64,000 bases of DNA, taken from the NCBI RefSeq assembly GCF_000287675.1, contig NZ_ALJL01000023.1, positions 1 through 64,000 on the forward strand. The letters run 5' to 3'. Below are positions 6,222 to 12,786 of this stretch, piece after piece. The stretch is from Lachnoanaerobaculum sp. ICM7. Its GTDB lineage: Bacteria; Bacillota; Clostridia; Lachnospirales; Lachnospiraceae. The position numbers and the translations under genes were made by a program. A model generated the notes under the pieces. It was not told where the DNA came from. It worked only from the letters and a program-made list of their open reading frames with translations, and did no database searches. The first letter of the stretch is position 1. Every line of letters begins with the position of its first letter.

Positions 6222-6599
6222 TCACTTTAACTTCTGCGTATTAATCGGCGGAAGTATAATCGGAGCCATACCGGGCTGCGATGTCAATAGGGTAACTTGA
6301 CTTCTAATAAATGGAAACATTATCGCAACCGTATTTGTATTTATTATTGACTCTTCTCTTGAATGATCCTCCGACTCATATAAAAATTGTGCTTCCGCTA
6401 CCAATTCTATGTTCATATCATCCTTCTCAATTTTAGTTGTCAATATTACATTGTATTCATGGTTACCGATAGGAATGATACCCTTCTTTATATCTGCATT
6501 AAGTTCACCATTTTTAATAACCTTATCCCTCACAAATGAAAATTTGCTAAAATAAAAGTTCTTCATTTGTAGGCTTGATCTAATGTCCTTAATATCCAT
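6222..6599 (-). CDS. SecB-like chaperone of a CmdTAC-like cassette
   Basis: This is a 125-residue protein resembling the export chaperone SecB. The C-terminal block runs NTVAIMFPFIRSQV, then LLTSQPGMAPIILPPIN, which matches the SecB pattern ([27 protein letters not shown]). Classical SecB is mainly proteobacterial. Outside that group SecB-like proteins often belong to toxin-antitoxin-chaperone modules, where the chaperone protects an unstable antitoxin. Here it is the third gene after an ADP-ribosyltransferase-like toxin candidate and a small acidic protein, so I read it as the chaperone of that cassette. The start is ATG at 6599 with GAGG about 5 bases upstream, 10 bases after the previous stop. 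A GTG two codons earlier is also possible. Transcription ends at 6158-6191. Confidence 0.75.
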   Translation of the reverse strand: MDIKDIRSSLQMKNFYFSKFSFVRDKVIKNGELNADIKKGIIPIGNHEYNVILTTKIEKDDMNIELVAEAQFLYESEDHSREESIINTNTVAIMFPFIRSQVTLLTSQPGMAPIILPPINTQKLK

Positions 6600-6609
6600 T
6601 CTCACCTCA

Positions 6610-6864
6610 CTAAGCAGCTAAGCCAATATCCTGTTGTATACAGCCATCATCTAAATATACTGTATCCATATTCGCTACTATAGCTGAATCATTCTTATAT
6701 ATAAATTTTTCATCATAGGATACTGCTGTATTTTCTTCTTCTGCGATGAAGCTTACTCCAAATAATGACTCAAATGTATCCGGAGTATCAGCTTCTGTCA
6801 GTGAAATATCATATCCAAACTGCTCTTTCGCATACATTATAAACTTGTCCATCAAACTATTCAC
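6610..6864 (-). CDS. Small acidic protein, candidate antitoxin of a CmdTAC-like cassette
   Basis: This is an 84-residue, strongly acidic protein (many Asp/Glu, few basic residues) with no recognisable DNA-binding motif. It starts with GTG at 6862-6864, inside the last codons of the upstream gene (8-base overlap), with a strong GGAGG 8 bases upstream. The two proteins should therefore be made in step. Its place between an ADP-ribosyltransferase-like gene and a SecB-like chaperone gene fits an antitoxin whose folding depends on the chaperone. In such systems the antitoxin's C-terminal tail is the chaperone-dependent part; here the tail (about residues 55-84) mixes hydrophobic and acidic residues. 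The antitoxin role is inferred from position and size only. Confidence 0.6.
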   Translation of the reverse strand: MNSLMDKFIMYAKEQFGYDISLTEADTPDTFESLFGVSFIAEEENTAVSYDEKFIYKNDSAIVANMDTVYLDDGCIQQDIGLAA

Positions 6865-7444
6865 CCTGCTTACCTCCTATTCGAATATTGCTGATTATAC
6901 CGGTATCTTTTACACAATATATTGTCTCTACTCCAAAAACCATGTCTAATGAATCTGCAAACTCAATTGTGTGCTCATATAATGGTTGTGGACGTTGTTT
7001 AAAATTACCTATTATCAACCTGTAATGTTTTTCTTCAGCATAAAACGAAATCAACATAGACCTCAATAAAATTTTCCTCTCTACTTCATCATCAACTCCT
7101 TCAATAATAATTTTATAATCATCTGATAACGTTGAATTGACAAAGCTTTCAAAATCGTCCACGTCTTTTTTTACCCTTAAGTCAAATGTTTCATCCTTGT
7201 ATATATCTTCTATATCAGCTAAAATAACTGTTGCCTTAATACTACCTTTGCCCTTTTGCTTTAACTCATTGCATTTTCTTTTAGCTGCCCACCAGGCTTT
7301 CGCCTTTATATCATAGAAATATACACCTTCTCCACACCAACTTGTCTTATCTCCTCTTAAAGTGAAGCCATTGGTTTTAATATCTTCTGCAGATGCAATA
7401 TCTGTCCCATGGCTTAGATTATAGTAGCTTTCAGTATATCTCAT
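6857..7444 (-). CDS. ADP-ribosyltransferase-like protein, candidate toxin (CmdT-like)
   Basis: This is a 195-residue protein whose N-terminal third has the pattern of small PARP/ART-fold enzymes. It has SHGT (H12-G13-T14), then a spaced segment ending in NGF (residues 25-27), then WCGEGVYFYD (36-45) with an Ala/Trp-rich helix after it. In ART-fold proteins the HGT and G-x-YF elements line the NAD site. The rest is charged and unfamiliar. It is followed by a small acidic protein and a SecB-like chaperone, the same three-part order as CmdTAC, where the toxin ADP-ribosylates mRNA during phage infection. I chose ATG at 7442-7444, with GGAG 5 bases upstream, over a TTG ten codons earlier that has no ribosome site. 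Activity and target are inferred. Confidence 0.65.
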   Translation of the reverse strand: MRYTESYYNLSHGTDIASAEDIKTNGFTLRGDKTSWCGEGVYFYDIKAKAWWAAKRKCNELKQKGKGSIKATVILADIEDIYKDETFDLRVKKDVDDFESFVNSTLSDDYKIIIEGVDDEVERKILLRSMLISFYAEEKHYRLIIGNFKQRPQPLYEHTIEFADSLDMVFGVETIYCVKDTGIISNIRIGGKQGE

Positions 7445-7482
7445 TATTTCTCCATGTGACCAATACTCTCTCAATAATATAT

Positions 7483-7509
7483 ATTATATTCTAACATTTT
7501 TCTATGTTA
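7483..7509 (-). promoter_or_regulatory. Putative promoter and operator of the CmdTAC-like cassette
   Basis: On the minus strand a TATAAT (7483-7488) precedes the toxin gene by about 40 bases. Just upstream, TAACAT and ATGTTA (7492-7497 and 7504-7509) form a 6-bp inverted repeat within the -35/-10 spacer, where an autorepressor could bind. The -35 box is poor, which would suit a weak or activated promoter. Confidence 0.4.
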
Positions 7510-7529
7510 TTATCTATACAATTAAAAAT

Positions 7530-7601
7530 TTATTTTCCCACTTCATGATACTCATTACAAAGCAGTCTGTAATACTTTTCACTTTCTTCTTTATTGCATT
7601 C
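7530..7601 (-). pseudogene. Remnant of a D-lyxose isomerase gene (C-terminal end only)
   Basis: On the minus strand 7530-7601 reads as about 23 codons ending RLLCNEYHEVGK-stop. This closely matches the end of the intact isomerase encoded at 12787-13470 (RLLCNEYPVAKD). It begins two bases after the GH31 stop codon and has no start or upstream body. I read it as the surviving tail of a second, deleted isomerase gene that once followed the glucosidase. Confidence 0.65.
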
Positions 7602-7602
7602 T

Positions 7603-9984
7603 CTATTTTGCAGATAAAAGCTCTATTATAGCTCCTCTAACAAACTCGTTTTCACAGACACTGTAAATTTCACCCATTACTTCACCTGCATTTTTGGAAT
7701 TATACTTTCGTACTACCTCCATTACCTTTGTCTTTAAATCATATTCTATCTGTGCCTTATTAAGTATATCAAATACTCTGCTCTGTATACTGCTATGTGA
7801 AGGGCTCTCTTTATCATCAATTTCCACTTCTAAAGCAGATGATGATGAAATCTCCGGCAATCTTATAATTAAAACATTTTTTGTTTCATCATATTCAATA
7901 CTTGCAGGTTCTATTTTCTTTTTATCGAGTAAAATATCAAATTCACTTTCTTTTCCTGCACCGTAGAAATAGAGATTATATCTTCTCTTCTCCCTTGCAG
8001 CATTTTTATTTCCCGAAACAGGGTTTATTCTAAATATTCTCTTTGCATTGCCTTCCAGAATCTCATATCCTGTATATGCCCAGTCAGACTCGACATACGT
8101 ATTAAATTCCTTTTCATCTTCGGCAAGAGTGAACTCTCCGTCCTTACCGGCAAAAATAAACAGATCCATTTCTGCAGGACTTGATATCTCATTTGTACTT
8201 ACATTTACATCAAGAGGCAAGATACTTCCCTCTCTTGCAAATACGGCGATATCTTCCAGATTTCTGTAGATTTCAAGTTCACGATTTCCTCTATACCTTA
8301 CTCCGGTAAAGATATCAAACCATTCACCCTCCGGAAGCCATATCCTGGTCTTTGCCAATCCGCTCTCTGCATCAATTTTTCTTGTCACAGGACATACTAT
8401 CAGATCCTCTCCGAAATAATACTCATTTTTATAATTATAAACCTTATCATTTGCAGGCTCATAGTAATAAAGTGGCAGTATCAAAGGAAGCTTATCCACA
8501 TTTGCTCTTTTGTTCATGGTATAAAGATATGGTATCAGTCTGTGACGAAGTCTCAAATATCTTTTAACTATTCTTTCGGCAATCTGATTGTACTTCCAAG
8601 GCTCTTTTCCGGAAAATTCATTGCAGGTACTGTGCAATCTCATTATCGGTGAGAATACTCCAAGTTGTACCCATCTTACAAACATCTCGTCATCTCTTAT
8701 ACCGTTCATATGTCCGCCGATATCATGACTCCACCATGCATATCCGATATTTGATGCTGTAGCTGTAAAATAAGGCTGAAAATCAAGACTTTCCCATGTG
8801 ATAATGGTATCTCCCGAAAAACCTATAGGATATTTATGGCTTCCCACTCCTGCATATCTTGAAAGTATAAGACCTCTTCCACGGTCTTCTCTCTCAGAAT
8901 CCTTATAGTGAAAATAGTTTAAAAGCCATAGAGGATCAAGTCCCTTATGTCCTGAATTTTCCCCCTGTTGCCAGTCTATCCACCAGTAATCGACTCCCTG
9001 CTTTTCAAGCGGATGATGAACATGTTTAAAATATCCTTCTCTGAATTTATCATTGGCAATATCAAAAAGTACAGGTTCTTCTTTTTTAATATCTACACCC
9101 ATAAATTCTCCCATATCCTTATAGCAATCTTCATATGCCCTTATACCGTCTGCCGGATGTACATTCAGTAAGACCTTATATCCTCTTGTATGCAGTTCAC
9201 TTAAAAATTCTTTTGGACTTGGGAAAAGTTCCTTATTCCATGTATAACCTGTCCATCCTGTACCGAATCTACCCTCCACATCCGTAATATGCCAATCCAT
9301 ATCGATAACCGCCACACTGAACGGAATATCTTCACTGTCAAATCTGTCCATCAAGTCCAGATATGACTTTTGAGTGTATTTATAATATCTGCTCCACCAG
9401 TTACCAAGAGTGAATCTTGGAAGCAGAGGAAGTTCTCCGCTGAGAGTGTAAAAGTCTTTAAGTGCTGTCAAATAGTCAAGGCCGTAACCAAAGAAATACA
9501 GATCTGTTTCTTCCTCATCCTCCCTCAGCTTAAATCCGTCCTTCGTTATAAGCATGGAACTGCTGTCATCCACCACAGACCACATCTGCCTTGAAACAAT
9601 TCCCTCTCCAAGCTCTGTTTCTCCATCTATGGCATCCAGTGTTCTGGTTGTTCCTTTTAAACTCTCATTCTTATCTCCATAATGCCATACACTTGAAGTT
9701 GTTCCGTAGTTACCGCTTACATTGATCCTTAAGCCTTCGCCTGAGAATTCTTTTTTATCATATATTACTCTTAGATAATCTGTAACTATAACCAGTTTGT
9801 CTTCACTGTCTAAAATATCAAACTTTACTTTCGGGAACTTTCTGTTTGTAACAGCCGCCGTCTCTTCATCAACAAATATATTTTTTTTACTGTATTCAAA
9901 CCTTATAAGTCTATCAGTAAGAATACTTATGCGATAATTATTTCCTTTAATTATTGAAGCTTCTGCCGCCTTTGTATTTACCAT
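7603..9984 (-). CDS. GH31 family alpha-glucosidase / alpha-glycosidase
   Basis: This is a 793-residue glycoside hydrolase of family 31, with the N-terminal beta-sandwich, catalytic barrel and C-terminal beta domains in the usual order. The catalytic region shows IDMDWH, then WWIDWQQG near residue 335 (nucleophile Asp), GFSGDT near residue 395 (acid/base Asp) and WWSHDIGGH. There is no signal peptide, so it should act on oligosaccharides inside the cell. It lies 12 bases after beta-phosphoglucomutase on the same strand, pointing to breakdown of alpha-linked glucosides. The WQQG form after the nucleophile differs from the common WxDMNE, so substrate specificity may be unusual. A remnant isomerase tail follows its stop. 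Confidence 0.85.
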   Translation of the reverse strand: MVNTKAAEASIIKGNNYRISILTDRLIRFEYSKKNIFVDEETAAVTNRKFPKVKFDILDSEDKLVIVTDYLRVIYDKKEFSGEGLRINVSGNYGTTSSVWHYGDKNESLKGTTRTLDAIDGETELGEGIVSRQMWSVVDDSSSMLITKDGFKLREDEEETDLYFFGYGLDYLTALKDFYTLSGELPLLPRFTLGNWWSRYYKYTQKSYLDLMDRFDSEDIPFSVAVIDMDWHITDVEGRFGTGWTGYTWNKELFPSPKEFLSELHTRGYKVLLNVHPADGIRAYEDCYKDMGEFMGVDIKKEEPVLFDIANDKFREGYFKHVHHPLEKQGVDYWWIDWQQGENSGHKGLDPLWLLNYFHYKDSEREDRGRGLILSRYAGVGSHKYPIGFSGDTIITWESLDFQPYFTATASNIGYAWWSHDIGGHMNGIRDDEMFVRWVQLGVFSPIMRLHSTCNEFSGKEPWKYNQIAERIVKRYLRLRHRLIPYLYTMNKRANVDKLPLILPLYYYEPANDKVYNYKNEYYFGEDLIVCPVTRKIDAESGLAKTRIWLPEGEWFDIFTGVRYRGNRELEIYRNLEDIAVFAREGSILPLDVNVSTNEISSPAEMDLFIFAGKDGEFTLAEDEKEFNTYVESDWAYTGYEILEGNAKRIFRINPVSGNKNAAREKRRYNLYFYGAGKESEFDILLDKKKIEPASIEYDETKNVLIIRLPEISSSSALEVEIDDKESPSHSSIQSRVFDILNKAQIEYDLKTKVMEVVRKYNSKNAGEVMGEIYSVCENEFVRGAIIELLSAK

Positions 9985-9996
9985 TTTTCTCTCTTT

Positions 9997-10641
9997 CTAT
10001 ATACAATACTTTTGCAAATCTTCAAAGCTTTCCAAACTGTAACTCACATCACCGAGCTTTTTTGCATCCCCTATTCCTGCAACTTGCATTCCGGCTCTTA
10101 TTGCCCCCTCTACTCCCGAAGCTGCATCTTCAACAACCAGACATTCGTTTGGTAAAAGTTTCAGACCTATCCCCGCTTTTTCAAACACTTCTTTGTCAGG
10201 CTTTGAATATTTTATATCATTTCCATCTACTATAATATCAAAAAAATCAATAAGATTTAACTTTGAAAGTATAAGCTTTGCATTTTTACTTGATGAAGCT
10301 ATTGCCGTCTTATATCCCCTTTGTTTTAAAATATCTAAAGTGTCTTTAACTTTTTTATCAAGATCTTTCTCACTCATCTCATTTAAAAGTTCTTTATACA
10401 GCTCATTTTTTTTATTTGCAAACTCTTCTTTTTCCTTGTTGCTGTACTTTTTATCAGACCTTTCAAGTATTATTTCCAGACTCTCCATACGGCTTACTCC
10501 CCTGAGTCTGTTATTTATTTCTTCATCAAAGTATATACCCAAACCGTCTGCCATGTTTTTCCATGCCATATAGTGATACCTGTCTGTATGGCATATTACT
10601 CCGTCAAGGTCGAATATTATGCCTTTATATTTTCTTTCCAT
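9997..10641 (-). CDS. pgmB: Beta-phosphoglucomutase (HAD superfamily)
   Basis: This is a 214-residue HAD-type phosphatase/mutase with the nucleophile motif DLDGV (D11 and D13) and a short helical cap. SSSKN near residue 107 supplies the motif II serine, and VVEDAASGV near 165 is the acidic motif IV. The family converts beta-glucose 1-phosphate to glucose 6-phosphate, usually after a maltose- or trehalose-type phosphorylase, none of which is in the window. It is coupled to the GH31 gene (12-base gap). I took ATG at 10641 because AAAGGGGTGG lies 8 bases upstream; the longer GTG start has no site. The 5' leader also has a small AAGGAG/CTCCTT hairpin at 10667-10683. Confidence 0.8.
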   Translation of the reverse strand: MERKYKGIIFDLDGVICHTDRYHYMAWKNMADGLGIYFDEEINNRLRGVSRMESLEIILERSDKKYSNKEKEEFANKKNELYKELLNEMSEKDLDKKVKDTLDILKQRGYKTAIASSSKNAKLILSKLNLIDFFDIIVDGNDIKYSKPDKEVFEKAGIGLKLLPNECLVVEDAASGVEGAIRAGMQVAGIGDAKKLGDVSYSLESFEDLQKYCI

Positions 10642-10725
10642 TACTGTAACCACCCCTTTACTTAATAAGGAGTTTCTCTCCTTTTACATAAATCGCTCTG
10701 CTTTTACTTGTAAGTTATAAAAATA

Positions 10726-10756
10726 AAAAGAGTAAATTAATTAAACTTACTCTTTT
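10726..10756 (-). terminator. Terminator after the ATPase-nuclease pair
   Basis: A perfect 10-bp stem (10726-10735 with 10747-10756) with an 11-base loop is followed on the minus strand by a T-rich tract. It closes the two-gene cassette just before the pgmB promoter region. Confidence 0.8.
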
Positions 10757-10798
10757 ATTTACTTATACAGCTATTTTATACATCAAATATACTCATTT

Positions 10799-11431
10799 TT
10801 ATCTACTGCAATTTTTTGAATAATATTCTAAAAATTCATTCACAGTATATGTATGAACCTCTGATACACAAATATCCTGCATTAATTCCAGGTCCCATAG
10901 AATGATTTCATTTTTTGCTAACCTAAATAGAGGCTTAACAAATCCTTCTATATACTCCTTACTAAGCGATTGGGACTTGTTTTGCTCTTCTCTTCTGTAT
11001 TTACCTTTTTCCTGTTCAACATACTTTTTATTTTTTTCGTAATTATATACCACAATATATTCTAAATATTTGCGACAGAATTTAAGGTCTACATCTACTA
11101 TATTAGAAAAAACAAGAAGTGAATCTTTAAGTTTCGTCTTAACATCTCTAACCTTACCATTCTTAAATTCTACAAATATAAGTTTGTTTTTAGTTTCACT
11201 ATAAAACAATGCATCTGCTGATTTAAAAACCTCATTAGATTTATGAAACTTTCTGCAGAAATCAGTTTTTACATCATCAAAATCAATTACAATATCTTTT
11301 GAAATATCTCTATCAATATCAACCATATTAACAGGATTTTTTTCATCCGAATCGTCCAAAGACACTTCAAATAAAGATTTTTTGTTTTTTATAAATATTT
11401 CTCTCTCAATTCTGTCGCTAATCTCTGTCAT
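10799..11431 (-). CDS. PD-(D/E)XK-like nuclease partner of the AAA ATPase
   Basis: This is a 210-residue protein with a likely PD-(D/E)XK nuclease core: SADALFY (D73) and, on the next strand, FVEFKNGK (E88-F89-K90), the D...ExK arrangement that binds metal. Basic helices follow, rich in Lys and Arg at about residues 130-155. There is no HNH or TOPRIM motif. The ATG at 11431 overlaps the end of the ATPase gene by 14 bases and has AGGGG 4 bases upstream, so the two are coupled and probably work as one complex. ATPase plus nuclease pairs of this layout (Septu, Gabija, PARIS) are phage-defence systems, but I cannot match this pair to a named one. The nuclease call rests on the short motif. Confidence 0.6.
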   Translation of the reverse strand: MTEISDRIEREIFIKNKKSLFEVSLDDSDEKNPVNMVDIDRDISKDIVIDFDDVKTDFCRKFHKSNEVFKSADALFYSETKNKLIFVEFKNGKVRDVKTKLKDSLLVFSNIVDVDLKFCRKYLEYIVVYNYEKNKKYVEQEKGKYRREEQNKSQSLSKEYIEGFVKPLFRLAKNEIILWDLELMQDICVSEVHTYTVNEFLEYYSKNCSR

Positions 11432-12674
11432 TATACCCCTCATTCTCAATTCGTTGTAACGGGCCGGACAATACTTTATAAATTTCAGAGATATTAAAAG
11501 TAACATCCTTCATTTTTGCATTATCACCTTCATTATATGAAAGGTAATATTTAATTACATCTTCTGTGTCATACTTTCCGGAAAACACCTCAATCGCACG
11601 TAAAAAATATGGGCTATGAGTATTTATCAAAATATGTAGTCCCATCTCTCTTTGTAGTAGTACTATAACCTCAGCCAGTGTAACCTGCCAATCAGGATGA
11701 AGATGAACCTCAGGCTCATCAAGTATTAAAGTTCCATTTTGCACTATGGTTCCGTTATCTATTAAGCTCTTAATCAAATAAAATGTTTTCATACCTGACG
11801 ATAAACTATCTAAAGATAAGCCTTTAGTTCTTGTAACTCTTGACATACCATCGTTATTGGTTTCAAACAATGACATATCAGAACCTAATATATTATTGAT
11901 TTTTTTGTAAACTAATGTCAATCTATCTTTTAAATTAGCCTTATCTACTAATGTTAAAGCTTTATTATTCATATAATGCGACAGCAATGACCTTCTGTGA
12001 TTAGTAGTATTTCCACTTGTCCTACTAAGAAATGAGTTAGTTTCACCATCTTTTCTGATATTATGAAAGTCTATAATAAACGGATCGTCAATATATACAA
12101 TCTCATGTTCCAGCTCTTTTCTTTCTTTTACCTCTAATAATTCATCATTATTATTAAAAATAATTTTTATTTTAAAGTCCTTTATTTTTAATTCTATTTT
12201 ACTATCTTTATGACTACGTATATTTGTAATATGTCCATTAAATTCATCTAAGAAAATTTCTGATATAATTTCGTTTTGAAGTAATTCATCTGCAGGAGCG
12301 TTTATTTTTATAATACCGGAAATTACATCATCCACAAATTTAGGCACATTGCAGTTTCTTACTAAGATGTCACGAATAATATTTTCATCAGTTTCTCCTG
12401 CTAAAATAGATGGTAATTCTTCAATCTTTTTATCCATTCCATTTATAACATATGCATCTGCAAAGTGTTGTGAAAGTAAAAACAACCTTTTAATAGCAAA
12501 TTCTTTCTCTAATTTCACTTTACCGGATATATTACTGAATGAATGGAACATTGCAAATAAACTACGACTAACTGTACTCTTTCCGGTGCCGTTCAGTCCT
12601 GCTATTATTGTGATCCCTTTAATTTCTATATCTGCCGAATCTATCTTTCCAACGTTTCTAATTTTTAATTCCAC
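11418..12674 (-). CDS. ABC-type AAA ATPase (OLD/RecF-like), putative defence protein
   Basis: This is a 418-residue ATPase of the SMC/RecF/OLD-like group. Walker A is GLNGTGKST (residues 26-34), the ABC-type signature LSSGMK starts at residue 291, Walker B is LILDEPEVHLHP (D319, E320), and a histidine switch lies in NTHSP (H353). The middle 200 residues are an unassigned, probably helical insertion. There is no TOPRIM domain, so any nuclease activity would come from the coupled partner. It starts with GTG at 12672-12674, with AGGAG 6 bases upstream. The cassette is flanked by terminators (12711-12751 and 10726-10756) and is visibly more AT-rich than the sugar genes on each side, suggesting acquisition by transfer. 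Confidence 0.75.
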   Translation of the reverse strand: MELKIRNVGKIDSADIEIKGITIIAGLNGTGKSTVSRSLFAMFHSFSNISGKVKLEKEFAIKRLFLLSQHFADAYVINGMDKKIEELPSILAGETDENIIRDILVRNCNVPKFVDDVISGIIKINAPADELLQNEIISEIFLDEFNGHITNIRSHKDSKIELKIKDFKIKIIFNNNDELLEVKERKELEHEIVYIDDPFIIDFHNIRKDGETNSFLSRTSGNTTNHRRSLLSHYMNNKALTLVDKANLKDRLTLVYKKINNILGSDMSLFETNNDGMSRVTRTKGLSLDSLSSGMKTFYLIKSLIDNGTIVQNGTLILDEPEVHLHPDWQVTLAEVIVLLQREMGLHILINTHSPYFLRAIEVFSGKYDTEDVIKYYLSYNEGDNAKMKDVTFNISEIYKVLSGPLQRIENEGYNDRD

Positions 12675-12710
12675 TATACTCTCCTGATATAACTATACTT
12701 CTATAAATAC

Positions 12711-12751
12711 AAAATCCCCTATCTATAAATATATCACAAAAAGGGGATTTT
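12711..12751 (-). terminator. Terminator after the D-lyxose isomerase operon
   Basis: A 10-bp stem, AAAATCCCCT (12711-12720) with AGGGGATTTT (12742-12751), encloses a 21-base loop, with modest T-richness after it on the minus strand. It separates the sugar operon from the ATPase-nuclease cassette. Confidence 0.65.
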
Positions 12752-12786
12752 ACATAATTTATTTATTTCTCAACCTATATATTTCC

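What the first reader, a model, noticed from the sequence alone, without database searches (positions are those of the whole stretch)
10726..12751. Unnamed ATPase plus PD-(D/E)XK-like nuclease pair, likely a defence system
A GTG-started ABC-type ATPase with all motifs is coupled by a 14-base overlap to a 210-residue protein with D73...E88-F-K90. The pair is AT-rich, flanked by its own terminators and inserted between sugar genes. Septu uses HNH, PARIS uses TOPRIM and Gabija uses an OLD nuclease with a helicase; none fits this partner. It may be a variant not yet named.
Basis: partly seen in the sequence, partly recalled or inferred. Interest (0 to 1): 0.78.

Follow-up and report, generated by a model that had tools for sequence, protein, structure and literature searches.

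The report
ABC-ATPase–nuclease phage-defence gene pair
Two overlapping genes in an oral Lachnoanaerobaculum-type bacterium encode an ATP-driven sensor and a small nuclease; the pair travels together between unrelated bacteria, prophages and plasmids, and is most likely a switch that shuts down phage-infected cells, of a kind recently shown to work in cholera bacteria (WonAB) but with a nuclease no library names and a sensor segment that changes unusually fast.

Summary
On the minus strand, a GTG-started 418-aa ABC/AAA_21 ATPase (12674-11418) overlaps by 14 nt a 210-aa protein (11431-10799) with D73...E88-F-K90. I found 22 intact loci with this pair, in Lachnospiraceae, other Clostridia, Streptococcus oralis, prophage and viral contigs, a MobL element, and Klebsiella and Acinetobacter plasmids. 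D52, D73, E88, F89, K90 and K100 are invariant in the 18 nucleases aligned. An AlphaFold2 model of the small protein retrieves mostly PD-(D/E)XK nucleases, weakly (Z<5). The ATPase resembles Septu PtuA and Rad50/SMC heads. Three of six sister species lack the pair. 'Not yet named' is only half right: WonAB (proven abortive infection), PD-T4-4, the predicted 'OLD-ABC ATPase + Novel REase' operons and PADLOC candidate HEC-02 are the same kind of pair. No Pfam, NCBIfam or PADLOC model identifies this nuclease (best HEC-02B, E=0.001). New detail: the ATPase's middle third (aa ~61-235) is hypervariable between sister species and looks exchanged by recombination (dS 1.21, against 0.12 and 0.28 on either side), as expected of a phage-sensing region. 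Anti-phage function, trigger and target are inferred, not shown.

The parts
11418..12674 (-). gene A: ABC/OLD-type ATPase, 418 aa, GTG start, no TOPRIM or other nuclease domain
   Evidence: AAA_21 E=1.4e-16; motifs invariant in 9-19 homologues; model pLDDT 80, Foldseek best hits PtuA and SMC/Rad50 heads E ~1e-8 to 1e-6
10799..11431 (-). gene B: small PD-(D/E)XK-like nuclease, 210 aa, 14-nt overlap with gene A
   Evidence: conserved ATG start and D52/D73/E88/F89/K90/K100 in 18 homologues; AF2 model and fold comparison
11162..11215 (-). predicted catalytic motif D73-x14-E88-F-K90 of gene B
   Evidence: invariant columns in alignment A3
11991..12494 (-). hypervariable middle of the ATPase (residues ~61-228 of the window protein), candidate sensor region
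   Evidence: 45% aa identity and dS 1.21 between sister species against 98%/93% and dS 0.12/0.28 on either side
10728..10754 (-). hairpin followed by U-rich tail downstream of gene B, probable terminator
   Evidence: fold z -2.96; not detected by the strict scan
12710..12752 (.). hairpin between D-lyxose isomerase and gene A; probable end of the upstream operon
   Evidence: fold z -5.0

Best explanation
The pair is a two-gene phage-defence (abortive-infection type) system. Gene A is an ABC-type ATPase of the OLD/Septu/Rad50-like branch. It most likely works as an ATP-bound dimer that holds and controls the small partner and senses infection through its variable middle insert. Gene B is a PD-(D/E)XK phosphodiesterase (D73, E88, K90) acting as the effector. 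On infection the ATPase changes state and licenses the nuclease, which cuts a nucleic acid (by analogy with WonAB possibly tRNA or rRNA rather than the chromosome) and stops growth before phage are made. Shown here: the pairing, the conserved motifs, the probable fold, the mobile and variable distribution, and the hypervariable middle. Inferred from relatives: sensing, activation, target, abortive outcome.
For: 22 intact nuclease loci all have the ATPase gene immediately upstream. ATPase and nuclease distances track each other (r 0.93, 0/5000 permutations). Catalytic residues are invariant while overall identity falls to 15-20%. The loci include viral and prophage contigs, integrase and recombinase neighbours, a MobL element, two plasmids and one C5-methyltransferase neighbour. 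The pair is absent at the same site in 3 of 6 sister species, with an isomerase-GH31 junction in G695. Nuclease dN/dS is about 0.12-0.25. The nearest PADLOC profiles are all defence ATPases. The same architecture is experimentally anti-phage in WonAB, where Walker and nuclease-lysine mutants abolish defence and translation stops (PMC12137116).
Against: No plaque or toxicity data for this family. Several chromosomal copies sit among housekeeping genes with no visible mobile element or defence island; in one small genus 4 of 5 genomes have it, between a purH-like gene and ylxM-ffh where the flanks were read. The fold match of the nuclease is weak (Foldseek best E 0.07, prob 0.28; VIA Z<5). WonA and WonB could not be aligned to it directly.
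Confidence: 0.76

Rival explanations
1. A restriction-like system: ATPase-gated nuclease that cuts invading DNA directly, telling self from foreign by modification or DNA ends, without killing the host.
For: PD-(D/E)XK folds are common in restriction enzymes and the best fold matches are restriction or repair nucleases; the S. oralis copy is next to a C5-methyltransferase; the ATPase fold matches Rad50/SMC heads, which bind DNA.
Against: The methyltransferase neighbour is seen in one locus only; no modification partner in the window; the studied relative WonAB does not degrade phage or host DNA (PMC12137116).
Confidence: 0.15
2. A plasmid/prophage-stabilising toxin-antitoxin pair, with the nuclease as toxin and the ATPase as antitoxin, not primarily anti-phage.
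For: Overlapping genes, small plasmids and prophages as carriers; the Pfam name of the ATPase domain is 'putative AbiEii toxin, Type IV TA'.
Against: In WonAB the nuclease is toxic only when the active ATPase is present, the opposite of an antitoxin (PMC12137116); gene order puts the ATPase first; many copies are stably chromosomal.
Confidence: 0.06
3. A host DNA-repair or recombination accessory (Rad50-like ATPase plus nuclease) maintained for housekeeping.
For: Rad50/SMC-like head fold; 4 of 5 genomes of one small genus have it, beside purH-like and ylxM-ffh genes where read.
Against: Patchy in about 1-2% of genomes, presence/absence between sister species, carriage on phage-like and plasmid DNA, hypervariable middle: none typical of housekeeping.
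Confidence: 0.03

Closest known systems
WonAB (Vibrio cholerae WASA-1 prophage; PMC12137116)
   Same: Two-gene operon, OLD-ABC ATPase without TOPRIM plus small PD-(D/E)xK nuclease; Walker-B-E to H-loop-H spacing 33 residues in both (WonA E300-H333; here E320-H353); carried on prophage.
   Different: WonA motifs lie closer together (K34-E300 against K32-E320), so the insert differs; WonB lysine is K71, here K90; WonAB homologues are reported mainly from Gram-negative bacteria; no direct sequence alignment was possible.
OLD-ABC ATPase + Novel REase operons (Krishnan et al. 2020, as cited in PMC12137116; example from Anaerovibrio lipolyticus)
   Same: Described as a predicted OLD-ABC ATPase with a novel restriction-enzyme fold in one operon, found in 0.96% of genomes and containing all WonAB homologues; probably the class the window pair belongs to.
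PADLOC HEC-02 (candidate system)
   Same: ATPase + ~170-aa nuclease pair; HEC-02A model PDLC04214 hits all 19 family ATPases at E<=1e-8; HEC-02B nuclease aligns with the catalytic motif and the K-x2-DS helix in register.
   Different: HEC-02B does not recognise the window nuclease convincingly (E 0.001) and genome scans with two HEC-02B models leave G000 unmatched.
PD-T4-4 (Vassallo et al. 2022)
   Same: ATPase + PD-(D/E)XK-type pair; PD-T4-4_A profiles are among the best hits of the ATPase.
   Different: The window nuclease gives no PD-T4-4_B hit even at E<=1.
Septu PtuAB / retron Ec78-Ec83 PtuAB
   Same: Same ATPase superfamily; PtuA among the top fold matches.
   Different: Septu's partner is HNH; motif spacing 31 instead of 33; the window partner has no HNH motif.

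Membership tests
[quoted passage not shown]
[quoted passage not shown]
   invariant D73/E88/K90; fold comparison dominated by PD-(D/E)XK enzymes though weak, Z<5
[quoted passage not shown]
   sequences not held; the wonAB primer sequences had no match in the viral collection
WonAB | anti-phage abortive infection needing both proteins, translation arrest | not testable with these tools
   needs bench work
HEC-02 (PADLOC) | ATPase matches HEC-02A model | tested here: met
   PDLC04213 9e-20, PDLC04214 1.3e-16; PDLC04214 matches 19/19 homologues; other defence ATPase models score similarly, so not specific
HEC-02 (PADLOC) | nuclease matches HEC-02B model | tested here: inconclusive
   E=0.001 against PDLC04226; genome scans with two HEC-02B models leave G000 unmatched; hhalign prob 16.5, E 0.0015 with motif in register
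PD-T4-4 | nuclease matches the PD-T4-4_B model | tested here: not met
   no hit at E<=1 for the window protein; the model rang nowhere, own genome included
Septu | HNH nuclease partner (PtuB) | tested here: not met
   no HNH family hit or motif in gene B
PARIS / Gabija / OLD | TOPRIM nuclease domain (and a UvrD-like helicase for Gabija) | tested here: not met
   ATPase is 418 aa with 65 residues after the H-loop histidine and no TOPRIM hit; gene B is not TOPRIM
Shedu (SduA) | SduA_C nuclease domain | tested here: not met
   E=0.031, below the Pfam cut-off, in 1 of 9 members

The most novel reading that the evidence does not exclude
The family is a separate branch of ATPase-nuclease defence, mostly of Bacillota and mobile elements, in which sister species keep an almost identical nuclease and ATPase core and exchange the sensor insert by recombination, so that phage specificity is swapped as a cassette.
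Probability: 0.35. Interest if true: 0.62.

Novelty: new variant of a known kind. Interest (0 to 1): 0.42.

Why it matters
The class of ABC-ATPase sensors paired with small nuclease effectors is described as largely uncharacterised. This family adds a group of at least 22 loci across Bacillota, Gram-negative plasmids and mobile elements whose nuclease no current model names, so it is missed by annotation pipelines. It also points to the part of the ATPase most likely to recognise the phage. Natural near-isogenic alleles that differ mainly in that segment make a direct swap test of sensor specificity possible.

Tried and rejected
Protein look-ups of gene B in PDB sequences gave only chance hits. 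Pfam and NCBIfam give gene B no family. Scans for the wonAB primer sequences in viral contigs found nothing, so WonAB could not be aligned. A scan with the PD-T4-4_B model rang nowhere and says nothing about absence. The Klebsiella pair has no match in E. coli genomes at DNA level. Most ATPase-only viral hits with a readable downstream gene are Septu with HNH partners and were set aside. Considered and rejected: Septu, PARIS, Gabija, OLD, Shedu (membership table). Krishnan 2020 and the PADLOC 'embedding' preprint were not available; they are known only through citing papers. No paper defining the PADLOC name NsnB was found.

Full report
What is there. On the minus strand, gene A (12674-11418) starts GTG after an AGGAGA-like ribosome site and encodes a 418-aa ATPase. 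Gene B (11431-10799) starts at an ATG inside the end of gene A (14-nt overlap) and encodes 210 aa. The longer 235-aa reading of gene B in the ORF list is not supported: close homologues keep the MTEI start. Gene A belongs to AAA_21 (E 1.4e-16). Gene B has no family in Pfam or NCBIfam at a meaningful score; the only leads are SduA_C 0.031, HEC-02B 0.001 and DruK 0.011, all nuclease families of the PD-(D/E)XK type.

The pair is real and conserved as a unit. tblastn, profile and pattern searches brought relatives from three other Lachnospiraceae genomes, Lachnospiraceae oral taxon 107, Lachnoanaerobaculum saburreum and Streptococcus oralis, viral contigs, a 'phage' record carrying a MobL relaxase next to the pair, plasmids of Klebsiella and Acinetobacter and further Clostridia-class and same-phylum genomes. 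Counting intact nuclease genes, 22 loci have the ATPase gene directly upstream. The exceptions are a second, shortened copy without an ATPase (L105), a remnant (L104), and one viral locus whose nuclease reading frame is broken (L014). Pairwise distances of the two proteins correlate at r 0.93 (0 of 5000 permutations as high). In the 18-sequence nuclease alignment D52, D73, E88, F89, K90 and K100 are invariant. Between sister species gene B has dN/dS of about 0.12-0.25, so it is under purifying selection. Prevalence is about 1-2% of genomes searched (4/299, 6/398, 6/391).

Fold. The AF2 model of gene B (7 sequences; mean pLDDT 70, 70-89 over most of residues 11-130, the 151-187 loop poor) has the strand-helix-strand-strand-helix-strand order expected, with D73 at the start of one strand and E88/K90 at the end of the next. 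Foldseek alone is not significant (best EcoO109I, E 0.07). VIA-align's best rows are mostly PD-(D/E)XK enzymes (PspGI 4.7, EndoMS 4.4, Can2, McrC, BstEII, SgrAI, LmuA, Avs3/4 nuclease domains), all with Z below 5. This is supportive because of the consistent enrichment plus the motif, not because of any single score. The ATPase model (pLDDT 80) matches PtuA of Septu and retrons and SMC/Rad50 heads (Foldseek E about 1e-8 to 1e-6, Z up to 19). It has only 65 residues after the H-loop histidine and no TOPRIM hit.

Mobility. In six genomes of the genus the D-lyxose isomerase is always present. It is absent in G695, G088 and G692. In G695 the isomerase stop is followed directly by the GH31 gene, so the HAD gene and the pair (about 10003-12783) are missing there. 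Elsewhere the pair lies before a terminase gene in a viral contig (L008), beside a serine recombinase (L012), downstream of a phage-type integrase (L011), beside a C5 DNA methyltransferase (L007), or on plasmids. Some chromosomal copies sit among housekeeping genes with no mobile gene nearby; in one small genus 4 of 5 genomes carry it.

A hypervariable middle. Comparing L. saburreum (L006) and oral taxon 107 (L005), ATPase residues 1-60 are 98% identical (dS 0.12) and residues 236-425 are 93% identical (dS 0.28), but residues 61-235 are 45% identical with dN 0.43 and dS 1.21 (alignment numbering). Nucleotide identity drops to 0.51-0.78 there while the isomerase, the ATPase ends and the nuclease stay at about 0.8-1.0. 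Raised synonymous divergence points to exchange of the segment by recombination, or to anciently split alleles, rather than to point selection alone. The same dip occurs in all eight pairs examined, weakest in the small ATPases, and ATPases of about 299-322 aa in some relatives have much of this region missing. The best reading is a sensor insert; this is an inference.

What it works like. WonAB of the V. cholerae WASA-1 prophage is an OLD-ABC ATPase plus a PD-(D/E)xK nuclease. Both are needed, mutating the Walker residues or the nuclease lysine K71 abolishes defence, the nuclease is toxic only with an active ATPase, and activation stops translation without degrading DNA (PMC12137116). Its authors place it in the OLD-ABC ATPase + Novel REase class and note similarity to PD-T4-4. 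The Walker-B-E to H-loop-H spacing is 33 residues in WonA and here, and 31 in the Septu ATPases found. I therefore propose the same logic: ATPase dimer as sensor and gate, nuclease as effector, abortive infection. Steps shown here are pairing, motifs, probable folds, distribution and the variable insert; trigger, activation and target are inferred.

Membership and novelty. Septu, PARIS, Gabija, Shedu and PD-T4-4 are not met on their nuclease criterion. HEC-02 is met for the ATPase (not specific) and inconclusive for the nuclease. WonAB-class architecture is met, but sequence homology could not be tested. I call it a new variant of a known kind. If the untested alignment places it inside the Novel REase clade, it is simply a new member.

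Noticed in passing
window 6222-7474 (-): Three-gene PD-T4-9 / CmdTAC-like toxin-antitoxin-chaperone defence system (gene 1 PD-T4-9_A 2.7e-4 and PARP-like 0.024; SecB-like chaperone PD-T4-9_C 3e-13, Pfam SecB 2.3e-6) about 3.3 kb from the pair; the ART-like and SecB-like genes are also present in sister genome G695.
   Followed up: partly
window 9997-10653 (-): HAD-family phosphatase gene that is absent together with the pair in G695, so the variable segment is larger than the pair.
   Followed up: partly
L009 (MT835532.1) 6706-7872: Record labelled 'Bacteriophage sp.' carries a MobL relaxase directly upstream of the pair and is probably a mobilizable or conjugative element rather than a phage.
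   Followed up: no
L068-L071, L095: In a small-genome genus (4 of 5 genomes) a variant of the pair is carried, between a purH-like gene and ylxM-ffh where the flanks were read; its ATPases are short (~319 aa) and have ILSHP in place of HLHP.
   Followed up: partly
L105 (G975:C2): Shortened second copy of the nuclease with no ATPase beside it, next to a MatE-like transporter gene.
   Followed up: no
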